In this document: positions 3,321 to 29,435 of the stretch, piece by piece | Position numbering within the stretch: position 1 is the stretch's first letter | Layout of the letters: every line of letters starts with the position of its first letter | NCBI GenBank assembly: GCA_030180075.1 | Contig: JASNJN010000097.1 | Coordinates: forward strand, 1-36,577 | Origin: Mikrocytos mackini | Taxonomy: Eukaryota; Endomyxa; Ascetosporea; Mikrocytida; Mikrocytiidae | Length of the DNA stretch: 36,577 bases | Direction: 5' to 3' | Notes under the pieces: generated by a model | Seen by the model: only the letters and a program-made list of their open reading frames with translations | Databases searched by the model: none | What the model was told of the DNA's origin: nothing | Made by a program: the position numbers and the translations under genes

Positions 3321-3653
3321 ATGGTCAACAATAACTTTTATAATCAAGAGCCTCCACTTAAGAAGGCTAAAATAGTAACCCATTACGATGACGCAGAGTC
3401 ATACTACACTTCAAATCCGGAAGCCGGGCACGACATTTTGAATTCAAATAGTCACACAAAAATTGAGAGAAAATTTCCTATCACAACTGTAGAAGACAAC
3501 AGCCTGCAACTCAACATCATGAGAACAGAGAATACAGATGACAGACGCAGGGAATTGAAGACTAACTACTATCAAGACACTAAAAACCAGAATAGATCAA
3601 GAGGAGCAAGAAATACAAAAAGAAACAAAGATATTGGTCACAACAACTTCTAA
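3321..3653 (+). pseudogene. N-terminal part of a retrotransposon Gag-like protein
   Basis: A 110-codon frame opening with ATG and encoding a polar, charged sequence rich in Asn, Lys and Arg with no recognised domain. It overlaps the next frame (open from 3559), which carries the Gag core, so the two look like one gene broken by a frame change of the +1 sense between about 3559 and 3653. A shift used during translation is possible, but with no pol, LTRs or zinc knuckle in sight, decay is simpler. Confidence 0.5.
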
Positions 3654-4500
3654 AGCCGGTATAAACAAACCGCTTCATGTCTGTAGAGACACTAAAAAAG
3701 AAAGACTCCCAGAAACTATAGTAGTATCTGAGGAGCAAGAAATAAAAGAAAAAACATTGAGATCCGAAGAAAAAAGGACGAAACAAGCTACAGAAGATAG
3801 CATAAACCCTGAAAACACCAGCGGTAAAGAACAAATACAAACAATAGAGAATGAGGTATCAGGTTTGATATTCAAACAGCCTGACAGTTTCTTACCGGAG
3901 GTCGGAGAACCCCGGGTTGATTGGCGAAATTGGTTTGAAGATTTCCGAGTATTTATGACCGCGAATAATTACGATGGTTTTCCTCAGGATAGAACAGTAG
4001 CTATTTTAAAGCTTTGTCTAGGAACTGAAGGAAATAAACTAGTAAGAAGTTTCACAGGTCCATTATTATCTATTGAAAATATAAATAGGGCAATGGACAA
4101 TCACTATTACAAAAAAGAAACCGCAACCATTAAAAGGTGCGAGTTTATAAACAGGATTCAAAGAAATGGAGAATCCGTAGAAAACTTTATAAAAGCGTTA
4201 CAAGAGATTGCTGTAGAGTGTAACCTTAAGGAAGAGGAGGATCACTGGATTAAGGACATTCTTATAAATGGTCTTCGGGATCAGTCAATGCGCCATTCTT
4301 TATTGTTTAAAAATTTGAAGACCCTTGAAGAGGTCTTGGCATTCATTGAAGAACAAGAAACGAGCATAAAAGAATACTCCAGGCCTTTTGGATATAATTC
4401 CAGACCAGTGCCAGGATATTATGAACCCATGAGGTCAAATCCAGACAATAACAGTTACCCACCTCAAGGAGTAAAAAGACAATATACAAGTCAAGGTTGA
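3559..4500 (+). pseudogene. Retrotransposon Gag-like protein (Ty3/gypsy type), truncated
   Basis: The frame is open from 3559, first ATG at 3634. The N-terminal 90 residues are charged. The following region has the retrotransposon Gag signature: a DWRNWFEDF motif (residues about 95-103), then FMTANNY, the ILKLCLGTEG block, a helix-rich stretch and a VENFIKALQEIAVEC block, the spacing of Ty3/gypsy capsid domains. Gag forms the particle shell around the element RNA. The usual CCHC zinc knuckle is missing: the protein runs into a Pro/Asn/Tyr-rich tail and stops just where the CCACAA iteron array begins (4501). No protease, reverse transcriptase or integrase follows, so this is a remnant. Confidence 0.65.
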
Positions 4501-4621
4501 ATTGAAAAATGCCACAAAAATTGAAAAATGCCACACGAATTAAAAAACGCCACAAAATTTTGAAAAATGCCACAAATTTTGGAAAATGCCACAAAAATTG
4601 AAAAATGCCACAAATTTTTGG
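4501..4621 (+). repeat. Six-copy CCACAA iteron array
   Basis: About six tandem units of 18-20 bases, each with a GCCACAAA or GCCACAC core followed by ATT and a run of A (typical unit TGCCACAAAAATTGAAAAA). The array directly truncates the Gag-like ORF. The CCACAA core recurs in the arms of the MITE at 18674-19087 and in the repeat at the window's right end. No inverted partner was found nearby. Confidence 0.75.
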
Positions 4622-5021
4622 TTTTGATTGCCCCGGAAAATAGCCATGCTCAGAAAAATTTTTTTTTTAAAACAACAAATTATTTTTCGGGCAAAAATTT
4701 TATGGGAAAACGCTTCCAAAAATTTTTTATCCCAAAAAATTAATATTTTTTTCCATTCTAAAAAAAAAAATTTCGAACATGAAAAAAAATTTTTTGACCA
4801 AAAACACGTTTTTATCACTTTTTAAACATTAAAAAAAAAAAATTTTTTTGAATTTTCAAGGGGGTGGTGCATTAAGGAAATTTTCAAAAAAGTTGAAGTT
4901 CAAAAACACAAAAATTTTTGAGAATTTTTTTTGGAAATTTTTTTAACACGTGTATTTTCAAGAGATCTACAAAAACAAACTTTAAAAAAATTTTGAAAAT
5001 ATTATGATCGATTTAATATAT
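4622..5021. other. Homopolymer-rich AT spacer
   Basis: Long A and T runs with no gene. The exact left limit of the outer MULE is hidden here. Similarity to the right end is clear from 5022, and weaker AT-rich similarity may extend outward to about 5001 (ATTATG, against 15690-15695 on the right). Confidence 0.5.
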
Positions 5022-5733
5022 TTTTCGAAACCATCTGCCTTGATATTATTTTCTATAACTTATAAAATTATATTATTTTAACAGTAGTTTGTTATACGCA
5101 TCATTACTAATTGCAACTTTTTGTTTTGTTATTATAAGGTTTGTAAACTTTGATTTTGGTTTTTTTTTACATTTCTAAATTTTAAATTTTGTTTTTTTAT
5201 TTTTAAGTAAATGGTTGTCTGTGAGTGCGGTGACACGTTTAAAATAAGCGTGCACTTAATATACATTTGAAAAAGGTTCATACTAACTATAATGGGCAAC
5301 TGCTCGGAGGAAACGAAGAATCGGAACTATCACTTGAAGGGGAATGTAGAAATGGCAACAGATCGGCAGACCATACTCAATACCCCCAATCCGCGGAAAA
5401 TATAGACATCGGCATCAAAGACAACAAACAGCCACATATAGAACGCCCTATTCCTGACGATCACAATGAAACAAGAATCGCCACTACAACGCCTACCGAA
5501 AGACGACCAGGGAAAATAACATGTACTACGCCAAGTCCTCTACAAGGTGCTGACCCCACACATATCTATAATACTGTCAAAACATACAACTGTAATTATT
5601 GTGGATTTAAAGATAAAGGCAAAGAAGCAACTATTAGACACATCGGAAAATTTCATAATGCAAACAGCAAATGTCACCGAACCACACTATTCGACTACAA
5701 TGCTTTCCTAGAGTGGCTTAACACGTATATTGA
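5022..5733 (+). repeat. Left TIR of the outer MULE (about 712 bp)
   Basis: Inverted copy of 14952-15664. It begins TTTTCGAAAC and stays nearly identical through the first part of the transposase reading frame until TATTGA at 5733, after which the two sides diverge abruptly. I saw roughly a dozen to twenty mismatches by eye. The repeat carries the 5' leader, the start codon and about 170 codons of the transposase gene. Confidence 0.88.
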
Positions 5734-5785
5734 TCTTTTAGTGTGCAATAAAAACGGTCGGAGCGATCTTATCATGCTAGCTTGA
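5211..5785 (+). pseudogene. Transposase N-terminal copy within the left TIR
   Basis: The ATG at 5211 opens a 19-codon frame (MVVCECGDTFKISVHLIYI) that is the first half of a C2H2 finger. Its second half, HLKKVH, lies in the -1 frame, which runs to a TAG-free end at 5785. The second frame has Ser/Pro/Thr-rich linker sequence and another finger-like motif, CNYCGFKDKGKEATIRHIGKFH (residues about 111-132 of the frame starting at 5267). It matches the minus-strand copy at 14513-15418 nearly residue for residue up to WLNTYI, then runs into unrelated sequence and stops. It has no catalytic domain. It could be inert, or make a short DNA-binding peptide; nothing shows expression. Confidence 0.65.
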
Positions 5786-6169
5786 TTGGATATAAAAATA
5801 AAGCATTCTTACCTGTTGTTGGGATACTTGGGAATGATACCATGTTAGGAACTATGGAATTTTGAATGGGAATTTAAAACGTATACTATTTCCAATCAAG
5901 AACATTTCATCTATATAATTAATGTTTGGATTAAATATTATTAATACAGCCTATTTTTATTGGAAATAAGAAGAATGTTTAAATATATTGTAATATGTGT
6001 CTTGATAAATAGATTTCAATTTAAATAATAACAAACAGTTTAAAATGATTTTAAAATAAATGATATCTTTATTTAATCGATTAATTTAATGACAACACGT
6101 ATATTCCCCTGTTTCTTCTTCCTCTAAAGGATCGTTTCTGTTAACACATTTTCTAGGATAAGATCAGGA

Positions 6170-7609
6170 TCATAGTACACACCTTATCCAATTGAAAGTA
6201 AAATTATCACCTTCGAGTTTTTCGGATTCGACTTTGCATTTATAACATTTCAGTTTGCTTTCACTTGCAAATCGAACCATCTTTTTTCTCCCTGCCTTAA
6301 TAATCCTTTTTTCTAGTTGTCTTTGTGTACCTTTTTTACGTTTGTCATTATTATTCAAATCTCCCCAAAAGTCATTTTCATTTGTAATATTAATATTTTC
6401 ATATTTGATTTTTAATAGTTTAAAGTCGTCAATGAACGCCTTAATTCTCTTTCTATTGCTCCCGTCCTTAAATATGGTTATAATTTCATTCATTGTATTA
6501 TTAATAGTTTTTATTTCTGGTTTGAAGTCAATTGGTGATTTTACCAATTCTTTAATAACCTGTTCTTTCATAAAAGCGTCATTTCCGCTCGTTGTATTTG
6601 GTTGGTATGGGGGTTCTCTAGATATAGCAGTAACGTTTCTGTCCGAGAAGTTTGTTTCTTGGTTTGAATTGAAATCTTTCTTTTTGTTGAGTTTGTGTAT
6701 TGTCAAACAGTAGTGGATGTGTTTGCAGAAATTTCGGCTTCTTCTGTAACTAAGGTATGTACAGGAGAACTGGTGAAAGCAGATATCACAGCTTTTACAT
6801 TGTAATTTACAACTTTCATCACAGTTCACGTTTTTCTTTCTTTTTATGAAATAGTTGTTGAGAGTAAACCCATAATCATGATTTTCCATCCTATATTTTT
6901 CGGCAGACATATTTTTAATTTTATTATGATCTTTCATAATATTTGTCTGTTTGTATGATTTGAAGGATGACTTATTGCTATTATTTTCTTTGTCAATCTT
7001 GATTGCTGCATCGTCTAAGAATTCCAACATTACTGAATAAAGTGTGTCCATTCTATTATGGACATTTCTATCCAAATTTCCATTTTTAAATACTCCAAAT
7101 CCCGATTCAACACGCATATTGGTACTGACAGGGCATTCCTTTGTATACGCCAACCCCCAATGCTCTTTGTTGTTAGCGTAGTATGTTTTGAAGTAATTGT
7201 AGAACTTTAAACTTTTTGATTTAATAAGGACTTCAAGCTTGGACAACTCACTATCGAAAATTTCTCTGTTTAGGCAACCATCCAACTCTTCAATTTTCCG
7301 CTTAATCTCATTTCTAATGTCACTAGCCTTTATATATTTGTACAAGACCTTGTTTAATGCTTTTTTGACATGAAAGTCACACCATATCCAAGAAAATCTG
7401 TCTTTCCAGATTTCTTTACAAGCATTATTGTAAAAAGAAGCCATGTCACTCATTAACCATCTAGGTGAAAATGTAAATTGTATTTTTTAATTAACTTTTC
7501 CATACACTGTAAAACTATTTGAGAATTCTCTTTCGTGCTTATAATCTGAAACACCGGAACACCAATCATAGCCTCGTCAATAACATAGAAAAAAATCACG
7601 ATGTAGTTA
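6170..7609 (-). pseudogene. Outer MULE transposase, 3' half
   Basis: Reading down the minus strand, 7609 to about 7455 encodes the part of the DDE core after the first catalytic Asp (NYIVIFFYVIDEAM, then IISTKENSQ). A -1 change at a T4 run (CATTTTCACC) leads into the long frame 7453-6170. That frame has the second catalytic Asp (MSDMA, residue 3), the CDFH zinc-like motif (25-28), the catalytic Glu in MRVESGFGVFK (115) and a Cys-rich SWIM-type finger (CKSC, then FSCTY and CKHIH, about 215-247). It ends in a basic tail. MULE transposases bind the TIRs and cut and join the element. The gene is inactivated by the MULE at 7619 and by frame changes. Confidence 0.85.
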
Positions 7610-7618
7610 TATTTGTTT
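7610..7618. repeat. 9-bp target-site duplication TATTTGTTT (left copy)
   Basis: Identical to 14377-14385 on the other side of the inner MULE. Nine bases is the usual duplication length for Mutator-like transposons. It lies inside the outer transposase codons Thr-Asn-Lys-Tyr. Confidence 0.92.
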
Positions 7619-7835
7619 ACACATCATAATTTTTAGGAAATAACTTTTTCATTCTATTTTTTTTTACTCTATAAAATATTTTTCTGCTAATATTACTTAA
7701 TACAAACACATTTATTATTTATTTTTTTAATTATATATTGTCATTAAAGCATAAATTCGTTTTATTGTGAAATTTTTTTTTCAAATTTTAAAATTACAAC
7801 TCACAGAAAGCTTCAACTATGACTCCACCTGAACA
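7619..7835 (+). repeat. Left TIR of the inner MULE (217 bp)
   Basis: Near-identical inverted copy of 14161-14376: I found only about three substitutions and one indel in a T run. Similarity stops at CCTGAACA, a few codons past the transposase ATG, so this TIR also contains a copy of the transposase leader and start codon (ATG at 7819). Confidence 0.93.
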
Positions 7836-7971
7836 TCGAGAAATAACAAATTACAAAGTAAGACTTTCTGATAACCAATTACACTATGACTCGTCATTCT
7901 ACAGTTCCCATTACTCTGGTGTCAAACAACAAATCCTATTAAACAAGTATCGTTGTAGCAGTTTTCTTTAG
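7819..7971 (+). CDS. 50-codon ORF started by the left-TIR copy of the transposase ATG
   Basis: The duplicated start (Met-Thr-Pro-Pro-Glu-His) continues 44 codons into unique DNA before a TAG at 7969-7971. The continuation does not match the transposase. If the TIR carries the promoter, as its leader suggests, this frame would be transcribed from the left end. A protein product is speculative. Confidence 0.2.
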   Translation: MTPPEHREITNYKVRLSDNQLHYDSSFYSSHYSGVKQQILLNKYRCSSFL

Positions 7972-8383
7972 CTATTACTATATGTCTTATATATAGCACT
8001 TCGCCGTTCCTACTGGTTCAATGCGTAATTTCTCGATGGATTTCTATTTATACATATATCGGGTATAAATATCATGAATCGCCATTGTCGACACCTTCTA
8101 ATACAGTTTTACATTAATCCAAGAAATAAAGACGTAATACATAGATTCTCTTTAATTTCTATGTATTATATGCAACAGTGTTTGCTCAGACAAACACATT
8201 TGTGACTTCAACTCCAATCTTAGAATCTAAGAATACACATATTAACTAGTAAAGTTAACGGATTACTGATTATAAGAAATATGGAGAACTTGTTCATTTC
8301 CGAGTATTGTAGGGTAAGTTATGATTAACAACATGAAATGTCTAGCGTTTCCAGATTAAAAAATAGTTCACACATATGATATT
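7972..8383. other. MULE interior, no gene seen
   Basis: AT-rich unique DNA between the left TIR and the hAT-like insertion. No recognisable coding sequence or RNA. Confidence 0.5.
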
Positions 8384-8391
8384 GTTATCGA

Positions 8392-10102
8392 TAGGGCAAC
8401 CCATTTATTGCGCAATAAAAATGCATTATTTGCACTAACGTTTTTTTGTTTTTGTACATAATTTGCAGTAAAAACTGGTTGAATAATCACATTATCAAAC
8501 CACTAAATTCATTATTTTCTATAAAAATTAACTATAGATATTTTATATAACGTTTATATTGTGTAGAGTTTCCATTTCCGAGTTTTTAATTTATCGTGAA
8601 TTGATCATGTATTTTAAAATCTATTTTCCAAAGAAGAGGGCGAATTTATCGAGAAATTTTATGTATAAAATTCCAATTCCTAGGAATTAAAATTTTTTTT
8701 CGTTGATCTGTTCAATAACATAAACATTCCGATTTGATATAAATGTCAACGAGATAATATAACACAAAATGCTGGGCCACAAGATAAAAGCTAATGAAAC
8801 AGAAAAACATATCGAGAGACACCAGAACAGCTTCTAATATATTCATATCAAAATAGTATTGGTGAAAGGCGACTGAAAAGCGCCCTGACATTTCTTCTTG
8901 ATATAATAGCGATTGCTCATGTTAGAAATATATTTAACTGTTGGCAATGTAAGGATCCAGTATGGGGCCGACCAAAGATGTAAATATAAAATAAAAATAA
9001 ATATTTAGAAGTTGTGTAATCCTAGATCAGATTTAGGGTTTCCATTAGGACTTTCAAAATTACCCAGTTGAGTTGCTTGCAGTGTCATCAATTATTTTGA
9101 AAAACCACTCGGTTCAATCTATTTAGTATAACAAAAGTTATTTTTCATATTAATGACTATATAATCAGGGCTATACATAAAAGAAAATTAATATTAATAT
9201 TTTATTAAATAAAACCCAAGAAAATATTTGAAATATGCATAGTTTTTTACGGGTTTAAGCACCTGATTAAAACCGATGGATAATACTGAGGTTTGAATGG
9301 GGTTACGTTAATTTTTACCCGAAATTCGAGGTAGCTTAAATGCTTTTTTAATTATAATATTTGGAATATGTATCGACATGCGAAAATTTATCCAGATGGC
9401 CTAAATTGCAAAATAACTTACGAAAAGAAATTTCAGGAAATTTAAAATGAAAAAATCATAAAATCATAAAATCCAAATATAACAATTTTTTTAGGAAATT
9501 ACTTTTCATGAAAGATAATAATTTCCTCAAAATTTCTCCACATTTTGTTAAATATGCACAACATTATAGAAAATGCTCCAGAATTTATTAGAAATAATTT
9601 TTTTAAATTTTGATTTTATACTGAAAATGTGTGGAGTAAACTGGTATAAACTGGTTTAAACCTGTTTATACCCAAATGGGAGATATTATTATAGTTTTGT
9701 ACACTTTATAACAACATTGAAATAAGGTATTTTATATAAAATAAATCTGATTTGATTCTATCATTACATATGAATATGAACAAATCACTATCTTAAAGTA
9801 AAAAATAAGTAATTTATTTTATAGAACATTCCAAATGTCGCTATCTACTCATCTTTTGGGTGATTTACGCATATTGGCATGTATTTATAAAATATCTCGT
9901 TCAATAAACGATAATTAACAAATTCACGGGTGAAGAATTATAAAAAAATCAATTTTTGTACATAATTTGCAGCTACGTTTTTATTTGCATTTATAACTTT
10001 TTATAGAGACGACTACATACAATTTAGAGACCAGAAAACGACTTTTCAGGGTTCATTGACCAACATACAAAAAATTACAAAAATTGCATTTGGGTTGCCC
10101 TA
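8392..10102. mobile_element. hAT-like element without transposase, 1711 bp
   Basis: Both ends read inward as TAGGGCAACCC, and an exact 8-bp duplication GTTATCGA lies outside (8384-8391 and 10103-10110), as expected for a hAT transposon. There is no coding sequence of note inside. A 20-base direct repeat, TTTTTGTACATAATTTGCAG, lies near both ends (8449-8468 and 9953-9972). A 30-base near-perfect palindrome is at 9643-9672. Because it lies within the inner MULE it is the youngest of the three nested insertions. Confidence 0.85.
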
Positions 10103-10110
10103 GTTATCGA

Positions 10111-11111
10111 AATAAAAATTGAAATAATGCATATTACTAAAGGAATGGTAGATTGACAATAAAATATGAAATAAATAAGAAAGCTTGATAGCGAAAAGTA
10201 AAAGACAATGATTTCAAATCAGGTGAAACAAGAAACAATGAAATTTATTGAAAGTGGGAACTGGTAAAATAATTATTAAATAGAATAAAGAGAAATCGAT
10301 AATACAATTGTACATTAGTTGTTTTAATTTGAAAATTTTAAAGTGTATAAATCTATATAATTATTTAAATTTTGTAATTAATAAATTTCTTTATTAAACA
10401 AGAAACAGAAATATAAGTCATTGTAGATCATATTGACCTACTTTAAGATATAAATAACAATACTAACAAATATTATGTTTAAAATATTGTATTAATTAAA
10501 TAAATATATCTATTTTCTACAATTCGCAGACAATACCGCCTAATATAATCATTTATAAACTTCTTTACACAATTCAATTTAATCTAAACATGGAAATAGT
10601 ACATTGATCTCCAAATTCCAATATATTCAATGTTGTCTTTATGCTACGGCAAAATGAAGACAAGTATATTATTGGTCTGTTATTTTGTTGATGTTGTTCA
10701 TAAACAACTTAAAGTATGAAGTCTGTAGTTTTAGAAAATTGTCACTATAAATCGTTGGGCTTTCAGTTATATATGCATTCAAAAGCATTCAGCAATTTAT
10801 TGTTATTCTTTCTCGTTTTGTGTAAGTAAAAAACTTCATCATATTGTTTGTTTGCTTTACAATGGAAACTGTGGATGTAAATAGCTCAAAAAAACAATAG
10901 TATAACTTGGAAGAGAGTCCATATCAATAACGGAAATCTTTAGAGAAATTCTTAGTGTGTTTATCTTCTTTGTGCTTCCTGTTGTGTTTAGAATATGGTT
11001 TTATCTTTTCACATTTTTAAAATTTTAAATTTTACTAATCAGCGAATATCTACTTATATTGCACAGCGGATTGCAAAGAAATACAACAAATAAAGTCCAT
11101 TTATATAACTC
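10111..11111. other. MULE interior, no gene seen
   Basis: About 1 kb of AT-rich sequence with no recognised gene, RNA or repeat family. Confidence 0.5.
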
Positions 11112-11333
11112 ATGGCCAAACAAACAACGCGTTTTGAATTCTCGGAAGCTGTAATAGCAACTTACGAAGAAACTCTACTTAAGCTACCAAGCAAACAATT
11201 ACACAATAAGTCTAGACATATAAACTTCGGTTCCAACGGAAAATATATAAGCTGTTACATAAAAGAAATAATATTCGAAACAGATATAATGGGTTTACGA
11301 GGCTATGCACAAGGGTTTTCACAAGCGATTTGA
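11112..11333 (+). CDS. Small hypothetical ORF inside the inner MULE
   Basis: A 73-codon frame with an ATG start and TGA stop. The composition is ordinary for a protein (no homopolymer stretches) but no domain, membrane segment or signal peptide is visible. It is on the opposite strand to the transposase and about 380 bp past the transposase gene's 3' end. It could be captured host sequence or chance; I do not recognise it. Confidence 0.25.
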   Translation: MAKQTTRFEFSEAVIATYEETLLKLPSKQLHNKSRHINFGSNGKYISCYIKEIIFETDIMGLRGYAQGFSQAI

Positions 11334-11713
11334 TACTAGCCCGATCTAGAACCATCAAACGATTACAATCTCCACAAAACAAAACTATGACCGCCTGGTT
11401 TGAATAGAATATATAAATCTAGCCATAGTTCTAATAAATTCAAAGTTCTAGACTACAATATATCGAAAAAGAAAGTTCTTCAATGATTGTTCCTACTCCG
11501 TTTCTTTCGGGTGATCACAATTTAACAATACGAATTATGTGGTAATACTGAATATTTTAATATTCCCCGACTTATTAATAAGACATAACATATAAATAAA
11601 CCATCTAAATGTATTGAATAATCAAATGATAATAAATAGATGTGTATAAATAAAAAACAAGGTGGAATTACAATCATGTAGTTAATAAGTATATATAGAG
11701 GATTACCAATATT

Positions 11714-14177
11714 TTATTTTATTGTTTTGCGCGTCTTATACAACCTTTGTTTCTGGGATTTGTAACTAACTCTGTTATCAATTTTTTCAAATCCTTTTGG
11801 CGTATTGGTATTATCTTCATGTAAATGCAATGCCACGTCTAGTAAGGAATTGATTTTGTTAATAAATGTGATAGATTTAGTATTTTTAATCTTTTCTTTT
11901 AATTTCTTTGTCTTTTTAATGAGCTTCTTTGATTTTAAAGAAATGTATTCTTTGGTAGTTATTATATTTTGCCTTACTTCTTTGTCGCAATGGCTAATTT
12001 CTTCGGATCTATTCGTAACGCCATCAGAGTACGTTTGATTATGTTGTTGTAGCTCATATTCTGACTGGATTTCGAGCGTTGTATTGTGTTTAAATCTCGC
12101 GATTTCTTTGTTGCTCATATTGTTTGCGTTTGTCGTCTGTTCTTCGGGTAATTTATCCAATAAGGTTTTGCCCATTTCCTTGCTTAGGTCTAATGATTCT
12201 AATAAACTAGTGTTAGAACGTTTGTTAAAATCAGAAGAAATTAAAGTGTGTACTTTGTGAATGTGCTTGCATTGCTCCTTCTTAACTACGAAGGAGTAAC
12301 AAGTACATTTGTAGCTATTCTTACAGATATGGCATTCTTTACATAAGAATCTACAATTGTGTGAGCAGTTATAACAAGACCCCTTCTCAATCTTGTATTT
12401 TTTATAGTAGAAAATTCCTTTGCGCTTGTGAAATTTGTTATCTTTTAAGTTAAGAGATTTTTTGTGCTTTTTTAACGAGTTTAATTCCCTATATCCCATA
12501 AACTCTTGATTCTTAGATATATTATTGAGATGGTAAACCAAAGAGCGTTGACTATCATAATTGATTAACATTGTAAGGAGGTAGTCAAGCCGGTTTCTTG
12601 AGATTTTATCCAAAAATTCATTCTTAAAGGCCCCATGAAAGCTTTCTAGGAACATATTGTTGTTAAGTTCCGATTCAACTCTAAATGGGGCCGCCCACCT
12701 TTCTACGCAACTGTCATACGTTGAAACAAAATATGCATGTAGTGACTCGTTATTATACTCCATTGATCTTAAAATGTGTCATATTTTTTTTTAAATTTCT
12801 TTATATCATAGGTTTTAATCATATTTTCAAAACTCCTTGTAATAGTCTTCCTAGTATCCTTATCATGAATTCGTGACATTATATTTCTCCGCACAGCGCG
12901 TTTAAAGTGCCAGTTGCAATATAACCACTGCAACTTAGTAGGGAAAACGGTTTTCCAACTATTTACATACACGTGTGACAAATCTGTTATCAATGTTCTG
13001 ATTGTTGTCGGTAACAAATTTTTGTCTTTAAACTTCTTTAGAACATACGAAATCGTTTGTTCGGATTCCGAATCAGTGATTATTGTTAATATGGGTAGAA
13101 ATCTCTGATTGTGAGTAAGGACCGCGAATGTAGATAGATAGTAACCATATCTATTCGTTCCATGTGTAGCATCTGCCATCAAAAACAATGGAGACTCTGA
13201 TTGTAAAGCTTCAAACTGGCTGGTGGTTTGATAAGCCAATATAAAATTTTTTGTAACTTTGTGAGAAAGGGGATCGGCTTCATTCTTCCTCTTCATAATA
13301 TAATGGGATATTGTTCCATCATTTAATTTCATCTCAAGATACTCCTTTGAATTTAAAAGTCGTCATTGCCTGCTCCAAAATTCTTTCGATATTCAAATTT
13401 TAATGATCTAAGATAATTTTTAGTAATAGTGTTCAATTTGGTCAAGTTTTTTATACACACATTTTTCGTTATATTCCTATATATCTTTTTAATAGGAATG
13501 TCGTCTTTGATTTTATTGTATAATTCGGATTTTTGTTTTTTTGATATTTTAGCTTTATAAATATTTGGTAAATGATTGTGCTGGGTTTGGAATGTAATCT
13601 GTATCTCTTTATTATTATCAACATATTTGATAAAACAAGAGCAATCCGAATGTTCTTTTAGCTGATTACTTATATAATAGTCCACAACACCGGTTTTGCC
13701 CCGTTTATAGCCTGTTGATTTGGTGAAACTGTATTGGCCATCATGAATAATTCCGTCTAAATATTCGCTGGCCTTGTGTATATCATCAAAAGTTTCATAA
13801 TTAAATGTCATATAATCTTTGTGTTTTTTTAGTATATGGTTTATAAGACAAAGTCTTTTCTTTGATTTGTAATCACAATGTGAGCAAATGAATAGTATTT
13901 TGTTGATTCTATGTGCAGATGACTTGTGGTTACGGAGAGATTGTTCGGAACTGTACTTTTTAGGGCATTGTGGGCATTCGTAGGACTTAATACGTTTGAT
14001 GACTTTTGGTTTGCCGGATTTAGCGACTTTGTTCCGCGCATGAGCTACATTGTAATCCGAATCGCAATTGTTGGTTTTGGGATATATGAACTTAGAATAA
14101 ATATCTTCATCAGGTTCATAGTCTTCATCGATAAACCCATCGGTGTACGAATATTCGGAGTGTTCAGGGGGAGTCAT
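11714..14177 (-). pseudogene. Inner MULE transposase (C2H2 fingers, DDE core, SWIM finger), two frame breaks
   Basis: Three consecutive minus-strand frames make one transposase of about 810 residues. Frame 1 (14177-13353) has an acidic N-terminus, two C2H2 fingers (C68/C71/H84/H89 and C98/C101/H114/H119) and a CSC...HNH zinc motif like WRKY-GCM1 domains. Frame 2 (13332-12769) has catalytic Asp in LMADATHGTN (54), Asp in LITDLSH (117) and the CNWH motif (139-142). Frame 3 (12763-11714) has the catalytic Glu in MFLESFHG (40) and a SWIM-type CTC...CKHIH finger (153-168). Both junctions are -1 changes at ACTTTTAA and CATTTTAA, where open reading continues. The ATG lies in the right TIR, with AAATTTT about 30 bases upstream. 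All catalytic residues survive, so one or both breaks could be base-calling errors. Confidence 0.88.
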
Positions 14178-14376
14178 AGTTGAAGCTTTCTGTGAGTTGT
14201 AATTTTAAAATTTGAAAAAAAAATTTCACAATAAAACGAATTTATGCTTTAATGACAATATATAATTAAAAAAATAAATAATAAATGTGTTTATATTAAG
14301 TAATATTAGCAGAAAAATATTTTATAGAGTAAAAAAAATAGAATGAAAAAGTTATTTCCTAAAAATTATGATGTGT
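14161..14376 (-). repeat. Right TIR of the inner MULE (216 bp)
   Basis: Inverted partner of 7619-7835. It contains the transposase leader and ATG (14175-14177). Confidence 0.93.
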
Positions 14377-14385
14377 TATTTGTTT
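14377..14385. repeat. 9-bp target-site duplication TATTTGTTT (right copy)
   Basis: Identical to 7610-7618; it marks the right border of the inner MULE. Confidence 0.92.
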
Positions 14386-15474
14386 GTCCCGAAAGTGCTA
14401 TCGGCCATTATAGTGTTGTTTCCATATTTTGCAAGTTTGGAAAGCTGAAATGGTGTCGTAAAGCAGAAAATAAAATCTTTGTTGGCTTCATCTGGTAGTT
14501 TCTTGTAAATTTCTATTCCTTTTTATTTTCTAAATTGTAGCTATTTAAAGCAACGAAGCTTGACAAGTCTGATTCTCCGGGTACGAATGAGCAATATCTA
14601 TTTTTCAGTGAACGAATGTAGTCTTTTGTAATATAATATTCTCTGCAATCAGGCGATGGGTATTCTTTATTCAAGCGTCTATATATTTCTGAAATTTTAA
14701 TCTTTTCTTTTAACTTGGCTATAATCCATAGTTTGACATCTTGTTTTAATTTTAGAATCTCATAATTGATCTCGTGGTTATGAAAGAAACAATATCTTAT
14801 ATAAACCCCTTTTCTGTATTTCTTTATTTTGACAAACGAAACGCAATTTACATAACTGTTTTTTGATTTGAAATTGCACTTATAGTTGGAAATGGTTGCA
14901 ATATCAGCTTGTATGTCTCCTTTATCCGAAACCATGGTATGAGAATCTAATTCAATATACGTGTTCAGCCACTCTAGGAAAGCATTGTAGTCGAATAGTG
15001 TGGTTTGGTGACATTTGCTGTTTGCATTATGAAATTTTCCGATGTGTCTAATAGTTGCTTCTTTGCCTTTATCTTTAAATCCACAATAATTACAGTTGTA
15101 TGTTTTGACAGTATTATAGATATGTGTAGGGTCAGCACCGTGTAGAGGACTTGGCGTAGTACATGTTATCTCCCCTGGTCGTCTTTCGGTAGGCGTTGTA
15201 GTAGCGATTCTTGTTTCATTGTGATCGTCAGGAATAGGGCGTGCTATATGTGGCTGTTTGTTGTCTTTGATGCCGATGTCTATATTTTCCGCGGATTGGG
15301 GGTATTGAGTATGGTCTGCCAATTTGTTGCCATTTCTACATTCCCCTTCAAGTGATAGTTCCGATTCTTCGTTTCCTCCAAGCAGTTGCCCATTATAGTT
15401 AGTATGAACCTTTTTCAAATGTATATTAAGTCCACGCTTATTTTAAACGTGTCACCACACTCACAGACAACCAT
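14386..15474 (-). pseudogene. Outer MULE transposase, 5' half
   Basis: The ATG at 15474 opens half a C2H2 finger (MVVCECGDTFKISV). The finger is completed in the -1 frame, which runs 15418-14513. That frame has a polar linker, a CNYCGFKD...HIGKFH finger, and a region with YCFFHNHEI and ITKDYIRSLKNRYC, equivalent to the HNH zinc motif and helix of the inner transposase. At an A5 run (AATAAAAAGG) a further -1 change leads to KKLPDEANKDFIFCF, then the first catalytic Asp in MADSTFGTN, where the inner MULE interrupts. The rest is at 6170-7609. About 155 codons lie inside the right TIR. Confidence 0.82.
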
Positions 15475-15664
15475 TTACTTAAGAATAAAAACAAAACAAA
15501 ATTTAAAATTTAGAAATGTAAAAACCCAAAATCAAAGTTTACAAACCTTACAATAACAAAACAAAAAAGTTGCAATTAGTAATGATGCGTATAACAAACT
15601 ACTGTTAAAATAATGTAATTTTATAAGTTCTAGAAAATAATATCAAGGCAGATTGTTTCGAAAA
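14952..15664 (-). repeat. Right TIR of the outer MULE (about 713 bp)
   Basis: Inverted partner of 5022-5733, ending GTTTCGAAAA at 15664. The first bases outside (GTGTTTTTT) do not match the left flank, so no target duplication is evident. Confidence 0.88.
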
Positions 15665-15790
15665 GTGTTTTTTAGTGATATTAAAGAGGCATAATCTTAT
15701 TAAAATACTTTTAAGAGGGACAAATATATTTTGTTTTTTATAAGGTTAAAGACATTCGGATTGATGATTTGTAGTTATCTCGGGATGATA

Positions 15791-16150
15791 GTGGAGATTG
15801 GACATTTGCAAAATGTACGAATATTTGAAGCATGATTTTCAAAGGACACGAATATTTGAATAATCTTCGGAATTTTCAAATGTTTTAATATACTGAAAAT
15901 TTCAAAATAAATTTACTTCAAATATCTATTTCGTCATTCTGGTTTTAAAATCTAAATTTAGCGCATTTTTTATTCAATTCCAAAATTTAATTTTTCAAAT
16001 CAAAAAATCGACGAATATTCGAATATTTTTGAAAATTTTCGCAAAATTTTAAACTATTTTAAAAAATATTCGGAAAACGAATACCAAAAATTTTATTTTT
16101 GACGAATATTGAAGTTTTTTAAAACGAATACTCGTATGTCCAATCTCTAC
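15791..16150. mobile_element. Inverted-repeat element (probable hAT MITE), 360 bp
   Basis: The ends match as inverted 16-mers: GTGGAGATTGGACATT on the left and the complement of GTAGAGATTGGACATA on the right. The interior is AT-rich with several CGAATATT or TCGAATAT motifs. No 8-bp duplication is seen. Its right border lies directly at the 3' end of the hAT transposase pseudogene, so it either inserted there or belongs to that element. The TAGAGATTGG end resembles hAT termini. Confidence 0.55.
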
Positions 16151-16153
16151 CAA

Positions 16154-17895
16154 TAACACATCTATATCGGGCTTTTCCTTACTTAGTGCCGCAACAAGCG
16201 TGTCTTCTGGATCTATCATATTCCTGGTTTTACTTTATATCTGCAACATGTAGAAAAACTACATTCACATAAATATGTGCTTGCAAAAGGAACCAGGGAT
16301 CGGAGTACAAGGGTTGAGATTTGTGGATATGATGCATAGCTAGCGCACCAGAACTTCTCATACCCCTTTGCTTTAAAGACAGCTTTCAAATGACTATCTG
16401 CGCACAAATCAATGAATTCGTCTTTTAGAATTTGGCATTCAAGAAGGGAAATGTCATAAATATAAGGATTTACTACTAAATCCTTTATTGAGTCTAATGT
16501 ATTGGGAATGTATCTTTGAAGTGAAGAAGACAACAATTGAAGGTGTGAAGTTATATTTCTTTTAAGAGAAGAAGAGACTTCTAATGGTGCCAAATTAGGA
16601 AAGTGTAAAATTTAGACAGGTTTATTTCTTCTAAGCAACAGTTAATTTTGTTAGTCAATGCACGAACTTCATCGCATAATTGAATCATATTTGTGTGTTC
16701 TCCTTGTAAATTTAAATTTGATTTATTCATAATGGAAAATATGTCAGTTAAAAGATAAATTATGAAAAAATTGTGATGTTGTTAATTTTCAATAATTTTT
16801 TGTGCTGTTCTGATTTTATTGATTCAAATTCGTTTTTGAATATTTTAATATTGGATCATATAATTCTGGAAATTTATGAAGCATATTACCATGGCCTAAC
16901 CACCTTACCCGCGTATAAAATATATATATATAACATGTTCTTTGTCCAAATCTTTACAAATTTCATCAAAAATTCATGAATTTTCCGGGCTCTTCTTTAT
17001 TGTAGTTATACATTCAATTATTCAATTGATGTCTTCGTTGAAAATTTTCGGTAAACTTTTTGTAGCAAATGCAACACGGTGTATTATGCAATGATTAAAG
17101 GTGCAAAATGGGGATTTTTTAAAACAAAAGATTCTAAACCTGATTTGTGTCCGATCATTGCAGGTCCACCGTCTGTACACAAACCAACTAAATTTTTCCA
17201 TTCTAAATTATGTTTTTTGGTAAATTTTCTATTATTCTAAAATATCTTCACTTTTTTGACGTTTCTATTTCTACCATTTTAAATATATTTTCTTTAAAAC
17301 CTCGGTTGTCTGCCCACCTAATAAAAATTGATAATTGTGAGGAATTTGCTACATCTGTAGATTCGTCGAGTTGTAAGCTAAAAAACCATTTAAAGCATAA
17401 TTGTTAATAGTATCTATGATCTTTGAAATAATTTGTTTTGACATTTTTTGAATTCGTGATTTAATTGTATTAGAAGAAATTGCTAATTTATTTCGAAGCT
17501 CTTTTTTGGTTCAAAGTATTTCATTGTTTTTTCAAGAATAGGCTGAATTAAAGTGTTGACGATTGTATATGGAGCTTTATTTTCCCCAATCATGTAAGAA
17601 ATTTCATAGGATGTTTTTTGTATGTCATAGAAATATTGTCTTTATGCTTTGCATGGTTTGTAAGTTTATTTTTAATAAAGAGTTTTTCGTGTCTTTGATA
17701 GTAATCCTTTGGTTTCTTGGTGTGGCCTTTATGTTTTTTCTCCATATGTCTAAGCATCTTATTTGGCCTTAAATAGTGATTGCTGAACCTTTCATCACCA
17801 AATAGGCACTGTGGCCGGTATGTTACCTTCTCTTGATTGTTAGTAAAATCTAGAAGCAGGTATTCTTTAAGATATTTGTTAACAGTTCGAGGCAT
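16154..17895 (-). pseudogene. hAT transposase pseudogene (SCAND3/ZBED5-like)
   Basis: Minus-strand fragments in the order expected of an animal-type hAT transposase. 17895-17590 gives a BED-like N-terminus (YLKEYLLLDF, then LRPNKMLRHMEKKH) in which the second zinc Cys has been lost. Around 17400-17330 is LDESTDVANSSQLSIF with the conserved Asp. Around 17200-17150 is LCTDGGPAMIGHKSG with the second conserved Asp. 16593-16216 encodes the C-terminal dimerisation region, including KFWCASYASYPQ and FASTYLCECSFS. About 16210-16154 gives ALSKEKPDIDVLL. Stops and frame changes separate them, so no functional enzyme can be made. This type is best known from animal genomes, which raises transfer from a host. 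Confidence 0.8.
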
Positions 17896-24838: not shown

Positions 24839-25609
24839 TTAAACTAACAATACAGCGTTAATACATGCATCTAATTCAGGTTTATTTGTAACTTGTGCGT
24901 ATTTAGCCCAAACTACTTTCCCTCCAACGGTCACTTTTCCTAAAGGCGCAACATTCACTTCTAATATTGTCCCTTTAGTTATAATCCCTAAACCACTGTA
25001 CAATTTTGATTGAGGGTTTTCCTTCACACCTATAATATCCAAACAAAAAGTCGTATTTAATGTCGGGTGGATAACATTAACTTTTTTATGTCTTAAGGCA
25101 CTAGGTCTAATATACTTTTCCAGTTTGGGTGGTTTTCTAGTGAAGTCCTCTCCTACAAATGTAACTTTCCTGACTACTCTCTTCCATGATTTCTTTCCTT
25201 TCTTTCCTGTACGTAGTTCTTTTAAAACCTCAAACTCGTTTATTGCGGGAAGCTTTACAATCGGAGCAATTTTTGATTTTGCCATTTCTTTTCTTTTCTC
25301 TTTGAAATCGTTTGATATCTTTTTTGATTGACTTACAGGTTGGCCAAGTAAAAAGACGGGAACAGGAGCTGCGTTTGAGTCCCGAGGTTTAGCTTTTGTG
25401 ATACTGGTTTTCTTGGCTTTGATTTGTTGTTTGAGTAGAACCTTTTCTTTGTATTTCTTGTTTGCATCAGTTTTCTTGCTTACTATTTTGATGAGCTCTC
25501 GTTTTGGAAGATTGGGCTTGGATTTTGAAAGTACATCATTTGTTTCGTTGAAATCAAACCGTCTTTTGTGAGATCGAACACGCTGTTCGACATAATTGTT
25601 CTGTCCCAT
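24839..25609 (-). CDS. NSA2: NSA2 ribosome biogenesis factor
   Basis: 256 residues, the normal NSA2 (TINP1) length, and recognisable throughout: the MGQNNYVEQ start with a basic helix (HKRRFDF), PVPVFLLGQP (83-91), the RTGKKGKKSWKRVVRKVTF block (133-151), GEDFTRKPPKLEKYIRP (153-169), and the eS8-like barrel ending YAQVTNKPELDACINAVLLV (237-256). NSA2 joins late nucleolar pre-60S particles and is needed for 27S rRNA processing. It is intact and uses an ATG with an AAATTT-like signal just upstream. It is the best-conserved host gene in the window and shows that the local sequence is reliable here. Confidence 0.96.
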   Translation of the reverse strand: MGQNNYVEQRVRSHKRRFDFNETNDVLSKSKPNLPKRELIKIVSKKTDANKKYKEKVLLKQQIKAKKTSITKAKPRDSNAAPVPVFLLGQPVSQSKKISNDFKEKRKEMAKSKIAPIVKLPAINEFEVLKELRTGKKGKKSWKRVVRKVTFVGEDFTRKPPKLEKYIRPSALRHKKVNVIHPTLNTTFCLDIIGVKENPQSKLYSGLGIITKGTILEVNVAPLGKVTVGGKVVWAKYAQVTNKPELDACINAVLLV

Positions 25610-26429: not shown

Positions 26430-27438
26430 CAGGCAAATCTTTCTAACGTTCCATTTATGATATACGCGCTTGAATTTTGCAAATAAAGATTCGCAGTAGT
26501 TGTTAGTGTTAGATCCACAGTCGCCACGTAGATGTAGAGCCCATTTTTCTTTTGCATGGGCGTAATTATTAATAACGTAATTATAGAAGTTTTTTGAGTT
26601 ATCTTTGATGTATGATGTAAATTTATCATAATTGACATTGAATAATTCCGCTGTAGTGGCCCGCTTGAAATTGTTAAATAAATTAGTAGATATTTGTCTT
26701 TTTTCATCGTCACGAATTAAAAACCCTAACTTCTTTATGACAGCTTTGGCAAAATGGAAATAACATCAAATTTACTGTTTTGTATCTGGAAATACAGTTT
26801 TCCAAGCATTCCAAATGTTGTTTGCCATATCACTGACAAAGAAGAGAATTTTCTCAATCCTGGTAAGTTGTTTCTTAAACCTTTGAAATATCGGAAGTAG
26901 GGTTTGTTTGGCTTCTGTGTTTGTAATGATATAAATGAAAGGGCATGCCAATTGCAAGTCGTTGGTTACTATACCCACCGTTAAATAGAACTTATAACGG
27001 TTTGTAGAGTGCGTTGTGTCAAAATAAATTTCTTTATTTGAAAACTTATCAAAATTAGAAATCATCGATCTGGTTGTAAAGGCATACTAGAAAATCTTCT
27101 TTTCGGTGTCATTGTTTATGATTTTGTTTTCATCGATAAGTGAAATAAACGTGTTATCTCTTTTTTTTCACGTTTATAAATTCTAAAAGCACTTTGAAAT
27201 CATTATCTTTTACTGTGTTATGTGTTAATCTATAAGACATAACACGAAGATAATTTTTAGTGATAAAATTACTCTTACACATAGTTTCCGATAGATTTCC
27301 TATTTGATCTTCATATAGTCGTTGTATAGGGATTCCTTCTGCCAATTTTATTTTATAAATATCAGTAGTAGCTTTGGGATATGCTAGTTTTGATATTTCA
27401 AATTCATGATTGTGATCGATAAATAACTCACTTGTCAT
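26430..27438 (-). pseudogene. Decayed MULE transposase (third copy)
   Basis: 27438-27154 encodes IDHNHEFEIS and the helix ITKNYLRVMSYR, equivalent to the HNH motif and following helix of the other MULEs. A +1 change at an A8 run leads, with one in-frame TAG, into the frame 27065-26772. That frame has the first catalytic Asp (IYFDTTHSTNRY), the second (FFVSDMANN) and WNAWKTVF. The same frame continues after TAA and TGA with CYFHFAKAV, then WALHLRGDCG and the catalytic Glu in YCESLFAKFK, and ends near 26430. It has no N-terminal fingers and no SWIM region. It begins right at the inner edge of the palindrome arm at 27439. Confidence 0.8.
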
Positions 27439-29435
27439 ACAAAATAGGAATTCACATTCGATTTTTTTAGCTTAAAAATTCAAAATTTTTGTGTTAGTCT
27501 ATTTATATAACTATAATTTGGCATTTCGCCCACCATTTTGTATTATAAATGCGTGTTCACAGTTTTGTTTAAATAATTTATAAACTAAAAAGTTAAATTT
27601 TCAAAAATGTAATTTATAATTTATAACCTACGGGGTATTCAAAGTGTGTTTAAATCATTTAATATTCGAATATACATACGTATACGTCGTTGGTATGGGG
27701 TGGGCATGCTCAGCTTCTTCCTAACTTTGCAAACTCAATATTTTCTAAACATGCCATTTTTGAAAACTACAGATATTATCCAGCATTGTTTTAAATTGTG
27801 ATCTGTAAACAAATAGTTAGGCGAATCGATATAGTACTAACTACTATCGGTATAATGAATGAAGTTCATGAGCACGTTTTTTAAAAACAAAAATTTACTT
27901 TTAAACTTAACATCCTTCTACACCACTGTACAGAGACCGACAGCTTTATACAACAAAACGACTTCATCCACACTATCAGCAGAACGACAACGATGTCTTT
28001 CTTTCGAGAATTATATACACGCAACTCCAAAACAACCTTGTGTTTTCTTTTGGAGACAAAATCCATAACACTTTCCCAATAATGCCGTCGTTTAGATTAC
28101 AAATACAACAAAGCACATATTGTAAAATGGAATGTTTCTATTTTATCAACAGGAAGTATCAAATAAACAATCTTCATTTATCTTGAAACAATATCGCCCC
28201 ATAAGATTATAATAGATCATACAAACACGTAAATTCGATGACAATTTTCATAAGCAAAGATAAAGGAACAGCTGTAAGTACTAGGAACAAATGACAGATT
28301 AAATATGAAATAATAACTGATAAAACAGAATTGTAATATTTGCTAGTGATTGATTTAAAATATGGGGATATATTCGTACNANTGTTCTTTAATTATAAAT
28401 AAGGAAATTTATCAATATGAATAAATAAACGATTGTCGAATAATTTAGAGAAAGAATTTTATGTATTTTAAAAACATAGAATATTTAACAATATACGAAT
28501 ATATCCCCATATTTTAAATCAATCACTAGCAAATATTACAATTCTGTTTTATCAGTTATTATTTCATATTTAATCTGTCATTTGTTCCTAGTACTTACAG
28601 CTGTTCCTTTATCTTTGCTTATGAAAATTGTCATCGAATTTACGTGTTTGTATGATCTATTATAATCTTATCGGCGGGTATTGTTTCAAACTAAATGAAG
28701 ACTCCGTATTTTGCTACTTTATGTTGATAAAATAGAAACATTCCATTTTACAATATGTACTCTGTTGTATTTGTAATCAGAATTATGGCTTTATTGGGAA
28801 AGTGTTATGGATTTTCTGTTCAAAAGAAAAAGCAAGGTTGTTTTGGAGTTGCGTGTATATAATTCTCGAAAGAAAGACATCGTTGCCATTCTGTTGATAG
28901 TGTGGATGAAGTCGTTTTGTTGTATAAAGCTATCAGTCTCTGTACCGTGGTGTAGAAGGATGTTAAGTTTAAAAGTAAATTTTTAGTTTTTAAAAAACGT
29001 GTTCGTGAACTTTATTTGGCATGTCGACAATAGTCAGTACTATACCAATACACCTAACTATTTGTTTGCAGATTGCAATTAAAAACAATGCTAGATAATA
29101 TCTGTAGTTTTCAAAAATGGCATGTTTAGAAAATGTTGAGTCTACAAAGTTAGGAAGAAACTGAACATGCCCAACCCATACCAACGACGTATACGTATGT
29201 ATATTCGAAGATTGAATTATTTAAACACACTTTTAAAGACCATGTAGGTTATTAATTATAAATTACATTTTTGAAAATTTAACTTTTTAGTTTACAAATT
29301 ATTTAAGCAAAACTGTAAATACATATTTATAATACAAAATGGTGGGCGAAGTGTCGTATTATAGTTATACAAATAAACCAATTCAAATTTTCGAATTTTT
29401 AAGCCAAAAAAATCGAATGTGCTTTCCTATTTTGT
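27439..29435. repeat. Large imperfect palindrome (arms about 940 bp, spacer about 110 bp)
   Basis: The left arm (27439-28378) begins ACAAAATAGG; the right arm (28490-29435) is its inverted copy, ending CCTATTTTGT. The arms are alike along their whole length but carry scattered substitutions and small indels (for example near 27730, 27950 and 28140 against their partners), so they are old and separate, not an exact copying artefact. Two unresolved bases sit at the left arm's inner edge (28380 and 28382). No coding content is evident. No target duplication was found at the outer borders. The arms may be long TIRs of the decayed MULE that abuts the left arm. Confidence 0.85.

What the first reader, a model, noticed from the sequence alone, without database searches (positions are those of the whole stretch)
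5022..15664. Three-level nest: hAT-like element inside a MULE inside a MULE
Seen: the inner MULE (7619-14376) is bounded by a perfect 9-bp duplication TATTTGTTT and splits the DDE core of the outer MULE transposase between 14386 and 7609; reading resumes exactly across the site. The hAT-like element (8392-10102) has a perfect 8-bp duplication GTTATCGA and lies inside the inner MULE. The order of events is therefore outer MULE, inner MULE, hAT. Such complete, datable nesting is rarely described in compact parasite genomes.
Basis: partly seen in the sequence, partly recalled or inferred. Interest (0 to 1): 0.8.

Follow-up and report, generated by a model that had tools for sequence, protein, structure and literature searches.

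The report
Nested transposons with a mispaired outer shell
A small mobile element sits inside a larger one that sits inside a third in the genome of what is almost surely an oyster parasite; the inner insertions look real, but the outermost element joins the ends of two different insertions, most likely an assembly artefact, so this is an ordinary case that needs read data to settle.

Summary
The inner two levels are real at base level. The inner MULE (7619-14376) has 217-bp TIRs and a perfect 9-bp duplication; the two other outer-MULE copies found (C116, C717) are uninterrupted there and hold one TATTTGTTT. The hAT-like element (8392-10102) has a perfect 8-bp duplication; a second inner-MULE copy (C558) is uninterrupted there and holds one GTTATCGA. 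Topology gives the order outer, inner, hAT-like.

The outermost element is not one insertion. The window's left end shares its 9-bp duplication (ATTTAATAT) with contig C717, its right end shares GTTTTTTAG with contig C116, and in both cases the two flanks rejoin into continuous copies of other repeats. So the 2.7% TIR divergence compares two insertions and dates nothing; the properly paired TIRs differ by 2/712 and 5/713. Properly paired there is a fourth level: both outer insertions lie inside other repeats.

The organism is almost surely Mikrocytos mackini, transposon-rich and sequenced with Illumina reads only. Misassembly is likelier than recombination in vivo, but no reads were available. 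Ordinary transposon nesting; new members of known kinds.

The parts
4519..5019 (+). first half of a high-copy inverted-repeat (MITE-like) element into which the left-end outer insertion ('Y') went; its second half lies on contigs C717 and C466
   Evidence: 39 other places listed (40 of 269 candidates scored), 39 of 39 stop at the same base; arm and continuation in C706 and C282; uninterrupted site in C706 and C282
5011..5019 (+). ATTTAATAT, 9-bp duplication of insertion Y; partner copy on C717/C466, not in the window
5020..5733 (+). left TIR of the outer MULE, about 713 bp; carries a copy of the 5' coding part of the transposase
5267..5785 (+). truncated ORF (172 aa, TTG start) in and beside the left TIR, nearly the same sequence as the transposase N-terminus; zinc-finger match weak
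   Evidence: Pfam E 0.037, under cut-off
5734..7609 (-). 3' part of the outer MULE transposase gene and tail; C717-like at all 22 informative sites of 5830-7494, C116-like at 5746, 7563 and 7603
7610..7618 (+). TATTTGTTT, left target-site duplication of the inner MULE
7619..7835 (+). left TIR of the inner MULE (217 bp)
8384..8391 (+). GTTATCGA, left target-site duplication of the hAT-like element
8392..10102 (+). non-autonomous hAT-like element, 1711 bp, 12-bp TIR TAGGGCAACCCA, no ORF of 100 aa or more
10103..10110 (+). GTTATCGA, right target-site duplication of the hAT-like element
11714..12763 (-). inner MULE transposase, C-terminal piece with a CxC...CxH motif (SWIM-like, name recalled)
12769..13332 (-). 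inner MULE transposase, DDE-domain piece (PF10551, E 5.3e-12)
13353..14177 (-). inner MULE transposase, N-terminal piece with a C2H2 zinc finger (PF13912 over cut-off)
14161..14376 (-). right TIR of the inner MULE
14377..14385 (+). TATTTGTTT, right target-site duplication of the inner MULE
14386..15418 (-). 5' part of the outer MULE transposase gene (ORF 14513-15418), ending behind the first catalytic Asp
14952..15666 (-). right TIR of the outer MULE; same insertion as the C116 4462 end ('X')
15667..15675 (+). GTTTTTTAG, 9-bp duplication of insertion X; partner copy on C116, not in the window
15667..15756 (+). second half of another repeat family that hosts insertion X; first half lies beside the C116 4462 end
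   Evidence: query of the two flanks matches 40 other listed places, 40 of 40 continuously across the junction, at 74-81% identity

Best explanation
This is a stack of ordinary cut-and-paste DNA transposons. Copies of a MULE (outer family, about 3.9 kb) had inserted into other repeats. A second MULE of another family (inner, about 5.0 kb without its own insert) then inserted into the transposase gene of one outer copy, making a 9-bp duplication and cutting the gene behind its first catalytic Asp. A non-autonomous hAT-like element later inserted into the inner MULE, making an 8-bp duplication. Shown: both inner junctions and their order. Shown: the outermost element joins the left end of one outer insertion (Y) to the right end of another (X). 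Inferred: the join was made by short-read assembly across near-identical copies. Weakly inferred: the inner MULE sits in copy X, because the right end of the window is X's and the nearest informative variants on both sides of the inner MULE are C116-like. No unbroken transposase frame was seen in the three outer or the two close inner copies; the 16-17-base introns of this species might account for some breaks.
For: Perfect duplications. Uninterrupted outer copies on C116 and C717 with one 9-mer at the site, and an uninterrupted inner copy on C558 with one 8-mer. MULE domain in the inner transposase, E 5.3e-12, and across the insertion point in the uninterrupted C717 copy, E 1.3e-4, below Pfam's cut-off; two Asp of the DDE triad and the CxxH are invariant in the 7 sequences aligned. 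Swapped outer duplications, each confirmed by a host repeat: the Y halves rejoin as in C706 and C282, and the X halves match 40 of 40 other listed places across the junction. The TSD-paired TIRs are the two closest of the 10 TIR pairs: 2/712 and 5/713, against 6-19 for the other eight; the margin 5 to 6 is narrow. Variant pattern changes between 7494 and 7563. Of 20 same-contig hAT-like end pairs only the window's match over all 8 bases. Illumina-only data, MIRA assembly.
Against: No reads were available, so misassembly is not shown directly; heterozygosity, gene conversion or recombination in vivo could give the same pattern. C116 carries the X left flank yet lacks the inner MULE, and its other end is a third insertion, so at least one contig switches copies or the site is polymorphic, and 'C116-like' is not a clean sign of copy X. 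Variants are mixed at 5612-5830, 14678-14943 and 15537-15630. The hAT-like element has no transposase and no autonomous partner was found. The inner copy on C558 also lacks matching flanks.
Confidence: 0.82

Rival explanations
1. The outer element is a true recombinant: copies X and Y (or many copies genome-wide) exchanged flanks in the living genome by ectopic recombination, gene conversion or alternative transposition, and the assembly is right.
For: The same flank shuffling is seen in the hAT-like family: 8 distinct 5' 8-mers recur among the 3' 8-mers, 2.7 expected, P 0.002; without the window's own pair 7 against 2.7, P 0.011. Reciprocal exchange would give this too. Variants are mixed in parts of the outer copy, as gene conversion would make them.
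Against: Some flanks occur on two contigs: C94/C152 share a 3' flank at 99.6% over 967 bp while their 5' flanks share nothing; C96/C211 share 99% over 1171 bp, C553/C669 a 5' flank identical over 342 bp, though there the opposite flanks were not compared. That only 1 of 20 pairs keeps its duplication would need extreme recombination (inference). Reads were at most 2 x 300 bases. Against this: C560/C615, also alike over 13 bases, are only 88% alike, so a repeated flank need not be one locus twice.
Confidence: 0.13
2. The nest is an intact three-level, single-locus stack exactly as drawn, and the outer element merely lost or never made its duplication.
For: Inner junctions are perfect; no TSDs could be identified for the most complete Ghost MULE (PMC6446971, passages).
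Against: Both 9-mers have perfect partners on other contigs at host-repeat sites, and the window's TIRs match those contigs better than each other.
Confidence: 0.04
3. The hAT-like element is not hAT but another 8-bp-duplicating superfamily (P-like or a MULE derivative).
For: No ORF of 100 aa inside it and no coding relative with the same TIR found (lists truncated).
Against: TAGGG...CCCTA ends, 8-bp duplication in the window, and flanks that fit nTNATNAn: of 38 ends T2 in 37, A4 in 38, T5 in 38, A7 in 35, like the hAT target consensus as I recall it.
Confidence: 0.15

Closest known systems
MuDR/Mu of maize and MULEs in general
   Same: Inner element: TIRs of 217 bp with the transposase start codon just inside, 9-bp duplication, DDE domain; PMC2725143 gives about 220-bp TIRs and 9 bp for Mu (passages)
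   Different: About 2.2 kb of the inner MULE has no ORF of 100 aa, where MuDR has a second gene (recalled); the outer family has about 713-bp TIRs, beyond the 14-500 bp surveyed in PMC6446971 (passages), and these TIRs include coding sequence
MULE genes of Mikrocytos mackini
   Same: PMC11069148 reports 346 genes with putative MULE domains in this species (passages); the scan here lists 150 matches (150 of 419 candidates scored) in 13.6 Mb
   Different: Individual families and nests are not described in the passages read
TvMULE1 nested in an unidentified repeat, Trichomonas vaginalis
   Same: MULE nested in another repeat in a parasitic protist (PMC2725143, passages)
   Different: There the authors suggest that the repeat moved with the TvMULE1 insertion inside it; here each inner level shows its own duplication and empty site
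hAT superfamily, non-autonomous members
   Same: TAGGG ends, 8-bp duplication, preferred target (superfamily hallmarks recalled)
   Different: No hAT transposase linked to this family here

Membership tests
MULE (inner element) | MULE DDE transposase | tested here: met
   PF10551 E 5.3e-12, 46.5 bits over cut-off 27.6
MULE (inner element) | 8-11 bp target-site duplication | tested here: met
   9 bp perfect, single copy in two uninterrupted relatives of the host element; not met for the C558 copy
MULE (inner element) | long terminal inverted repeats | tested here: met
   217 bp, 2 substitutions in 216
MULE (outer element) | MULE DDE transposase | tested here: inconclusive
   uninterrupted C717 copy: PF10551 positions 2-98, E 1.3e-4, 22.8 bits under cut-off 27.6; 3 of 3 homologues found carry PF10551; catalytic columns align
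MULE (outer element) | 8-11 bp target-site duplication | tested here: met
   not met within the window (ATTTAATAT vs GTTTTTTAG) or within C116; 9 bp met when the window's ends are paired with C717 and C116, with host-repeat sites
MULE (outer element) | long terminal inverted repeats | tested here: met
   about 713 bp
hAT | 8-bp target-site duplication | tested here: met
   window copy perfect with uninterrupted C558; matching over 8 bases in 1 of 20 same-contig pairs, over 7 in 3
hAT | short TIRs starting TAGGG/CAGGG and target nTnnnnAn (recalled) | tested here: met
   12-bp TIR; T2 in 37 and A7 in 35 of 38 ends; the window's own 8-mer has G at position 7
hAT | hAT transposase in the element or an autonomous partner | tested here: inconclusive
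   no ORF of 100 aa inside; 45 hAT-dimer matches in the assembly, none seen by eye within 5 kb of a listed TIR, but the TIR list of 161 matches was cut

The most novel reading that the evidence does not exclude
The shuffled duplications are biology, not assembly: in M. mackini, where Argonaute and Dicer orthologues could not be identified (PMC10245619, section 6), transposon copies recombine with each other so often that few copies keep their original pair of flanks, so that transposons act as genome-wide crossover points.
Probability: 0.1. Interest if true: 0.7.

Novelty: new member of a known kind. Interest (0 to 1): 0.27.

Why it matters
The nest is ordinary for a genome more than half of whose genes show transposon signatures. 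The useful points are practical. Two MULE families and a hAT-like family can be annotated with exact termini and target preferences. Matching target-site duplications across contigs is a read-free test of assembly integrity, and here it suggests that contigs of this draft switch copies inside repeats, so gene order, transposon counts and TIR-based ages taken from them need care.

Tried and rejected
Tried without result: homologues of the inner C-terminal piece (none of 3058 candidates passed); autonomous hAT partner by family and TIR scans and in two hAT loci; second end of the diverged inner relative on C327 within the 6 kb held. Rejected: microsporidian origin, my first guess, because the NSA2-like ORF is 99% identical to a GAHX01 record that PMC9998036 lists as the M. 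mackini transcriptome (passage). Rejected: TIR dating of the outer element and dating of the hAT-like copy from private changes (12 of 1700 sites), because its first four 200-column blocks differ from L002 by 0-0.5% and the later ones by 1.5-7.1%. C560/C615 share 13 flank bases but are only 88% alike over 865 bp, which counts against the one-locus-twice reading; C311/C544 and C249/C403/C663, also alike over 13 bases, were not followed up. C717/C466 share 277 identical bases inward and 538 bp at 91% outward. The flank test used only ends with an exact TIR stretch and no G at the last place, plus ends; one flank with an N was dropped from the 8-mer set and from the permutation test. That test, mean within-copy match 5.26 against 4.99, was not significant (P 0.10). 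One of the 20 pairs (C296) was not checked as one full copy.
Full report
Where it comes from. The window is contig C89 of an assembly of 13.6 Mb in 733 contigs. Its ORF 24839-25609, an NSA2-like ribosome-biogenesis protein, is 99% identical to GAHX01000574, and PMC9998036 lists GAHX01 as the Mikrocytos mackini transcriptome (passage). The species is a rhizarian (Ascetosporea) parasite of Pacific oysters (PMC11069148, passage). The published genome is 49.7 Mb in 16,018 contigs, N50 4547, with 8075 of 14,372 genes of transposon signature (PMC10245619, abstract and passages), sequenced on MiSeq and HiSeq only (section 11) and drawn from a MIRA assembly (passage). That G000 is a subset of this assembly is an inference; the contigs whose lengths I saw are all over 10,000 bases.

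Inner levels. The inner MULE at 7619-14376 has TIRs of 217 bp and TATTTGTTT on both sides. The two other outer copies found (one search lists 3 places, the window included) are uninterrupted at this point, C116 at 1865-1873 and C717 at 9605-9613, each with one TATTTGTTT and the same flanks on both sides apart from single substitutions. These are natural empty sites, so no insert had to be removed to test the claim. In C717 and C116 one frame runs through the point (motif MADSTFGTNKYNY), and the two window pieces translated apart carry its two sides. The uninterrupted C717 ORF matches PF10551 over positions 2-98 at E 1.3e-4, below the curated cut-off; its three homologues carry PF10551, and two Asp and the CxxH are invariant in the seven sequences aligned. 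The insertion separates the first Asp from the rest. The hAT-like element at 8392-10102 has GTTATCGA on both sides; the second inner copy, C558, is uninterrupted with one GTTATCGA. Topology gives the order outer, inner, hAT-like.

The outermost level. The window's outer element has no matching duplication. With termini A[C/T]TTTTCGAAAC, the left flank ends in ATTTAATAT, and the same 9-mer begins the C717/C466 flank beyond the element's other end. The left flank is the first half of a high-copy inverted-repeat element: 39 other places are listed (40 of 269 candidates scored), and 39 of 39 stop at the same base. C706 and C282 show that element uninterrupted, with one ATTTAATAT joining the window half to the C717 half. 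The right flank starts with GTTTTTTAG, and the flank at the C116 4462 end ends with it. A query joining those two flanks matched 40 other listed places in a second repeat family at 74-81%, 40 of 40 running across the junction (40 of 60 candidates scored). So the window's left end is one side of insertion Y and its right end one side of insertion X. The TIRs agree: of ten TIR pairs the two paired by duplications are the closest, 2/712 and 5/713 substitutions, against 6-19 for the other eight; the next closest, C116a-C116b with 6, is near. Sites that differ between C116 and C717 show the window C717-like at all 22 from 5830 to 7494, C116-like at 7563, 7603, 14455 and 14481 and at all 11 from 15035 to 15483, and mixed at 5612-5830, 14678-14943 and 15537-15630. 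A switch lies just outside the inner MULE, between 7494 and 7563. That the inner MULE sits in copy X is a weak inference, because C116 itself joins the X left end to a third insertion and lacks the inner MULE.

Assembly or biology. The same shuffling is seen in the hAT-like family (59 matches, some of them pieces of one copy; 40 of 137 candidates scored). Flanks fit nTNATNAn at nearly all of 38 ends, yet of 20 same-contig pairs only the window's match over 8 bases; three match over 7. Eight distinct 8-mers are shared between 28 distinct 5' and 30 distinct 3' flanks, against 2.7 expected (P 0.002); without the window's own pair it is seven against 2.7 (P 0.011). So at least some true partners lie on other contigs. 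Flanks also recur on two contigs: C94/C152 99.6% over 967 bp on the 3' side and nothing in common on the 5' side; C96/C211 99% over 1171 bp and C13/C692 about 470 bp without a mismatch but with one gap; C553/C669 identical over 342 bp; in the last three the opposite flanks were not compared. Against this, C560/C615 are only 88% alike. I judge misassembly across repeats far likelier than recombination in vivo, but without reads this is inference. The window's inner levels keep both duplications, which a random join would rarely give.

Dating. Outer TIRs within the window differ by 19/709, which would look older than the inner TIRs (2/216), but they are not a pair. Correctly paired outer TIRs (0.3% and 0.7%) do not differ clearly from the inner TIRs (0.9%) or from the two inner copies (35 of 4574 sites outside the TIRs, 0.77%). 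All these levels look young and close in time; only the nesting gives the order. The hAT-like copy is mosaic against L002.

State of the elements. No unbroken transposase frame was seen in the outer copies (window, C116, C717) or in the two close inner copies (window, C558). The species has 16-17-base introns (PMC10245619, abstract), which I did not model. Outer TIRs contain the transposase start codon and about 520 bases of the coding region, so each element carries a second, truncated copy of the N-terminal region; from that ATG the frame is open in 1 of the 5 TIRs examined (C116a) and closes after 19 codons in the other four. The diverged inner relative on C327 keeps the terminal 31 bases unchanged although its coding DNA is 68% identical, which fits conserved transposase recognition (inference).

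Literature. Searches with nested, MULE, hAT, protist and parasite terms (listings seen) and with Mikrocytos, nested and transposon (no paper) turned up no description of this nest; a nested TvMULE1 pair is known in Trichomonas vaginalis (PMC2725143, passages). Most subscription papers are not in that library.

Verdict. Real, ordinary transposon nesting; four levels rather than three if the outer ends are paired as the duplications say; the contig is composite at the outermost level.

Noticed in passing
hAT-like family, ends on 20 contigs: Flanking 8-mers fit nTNATNAn but 5' and 3' 8-mers differ in 19 of 20 same-contig pairs (3 of them by one base); more partners than chance would give appear on other contigs.
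   Followed up: partly
5020-5733 and 14952-15666: Outer MULE TIRs of about 713 bp include the transposase start codon and about 520 bases of coding region; the frame from that ATG is open in 1 of 5 TIRs examined.
   Followed up: partly
L050 2884-2914 (C327): A diverged relative of the inner MULE keeps the terminal 31 bases of the TIR perfectly while its coding DNA is 68% identical.
   Followed up: partly
92-807: Inverted ends CAGGGTTCGG with a perfect 8-bp duplication CTTCCAAC: a second candidate hAT-like element.
   Followed up: no
27439-29435: Very long fold-back: five nested pairs of inverted arms of 51 to 287 nt, 83-95% complementary, over about 2 kb.
   Followed up: no
26745-27029 and 31906-33444: Two further MULE domains in the window, one with two stops, one in an open 512-aa ORF.
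   Followed up: no
15794-16156: Repeat with inverted ends (by eye), 35 other places listed for its first 107 bases, close to the right of the outer MULE.
   Followed up: no
3634-4500: Gag-like ORF (PF03732, E 9.4e-4, under cut-off) next to a run of 19-20-base tandem repeats at about 4501-4620.
   Followed up: no
L079 2711-3091: About 380-bp element TAGGGTTTCCC...AAAACCCTA with 8-bp duplication GTTTTAAT, near a hAT transposase on C493.
   Followed up: no
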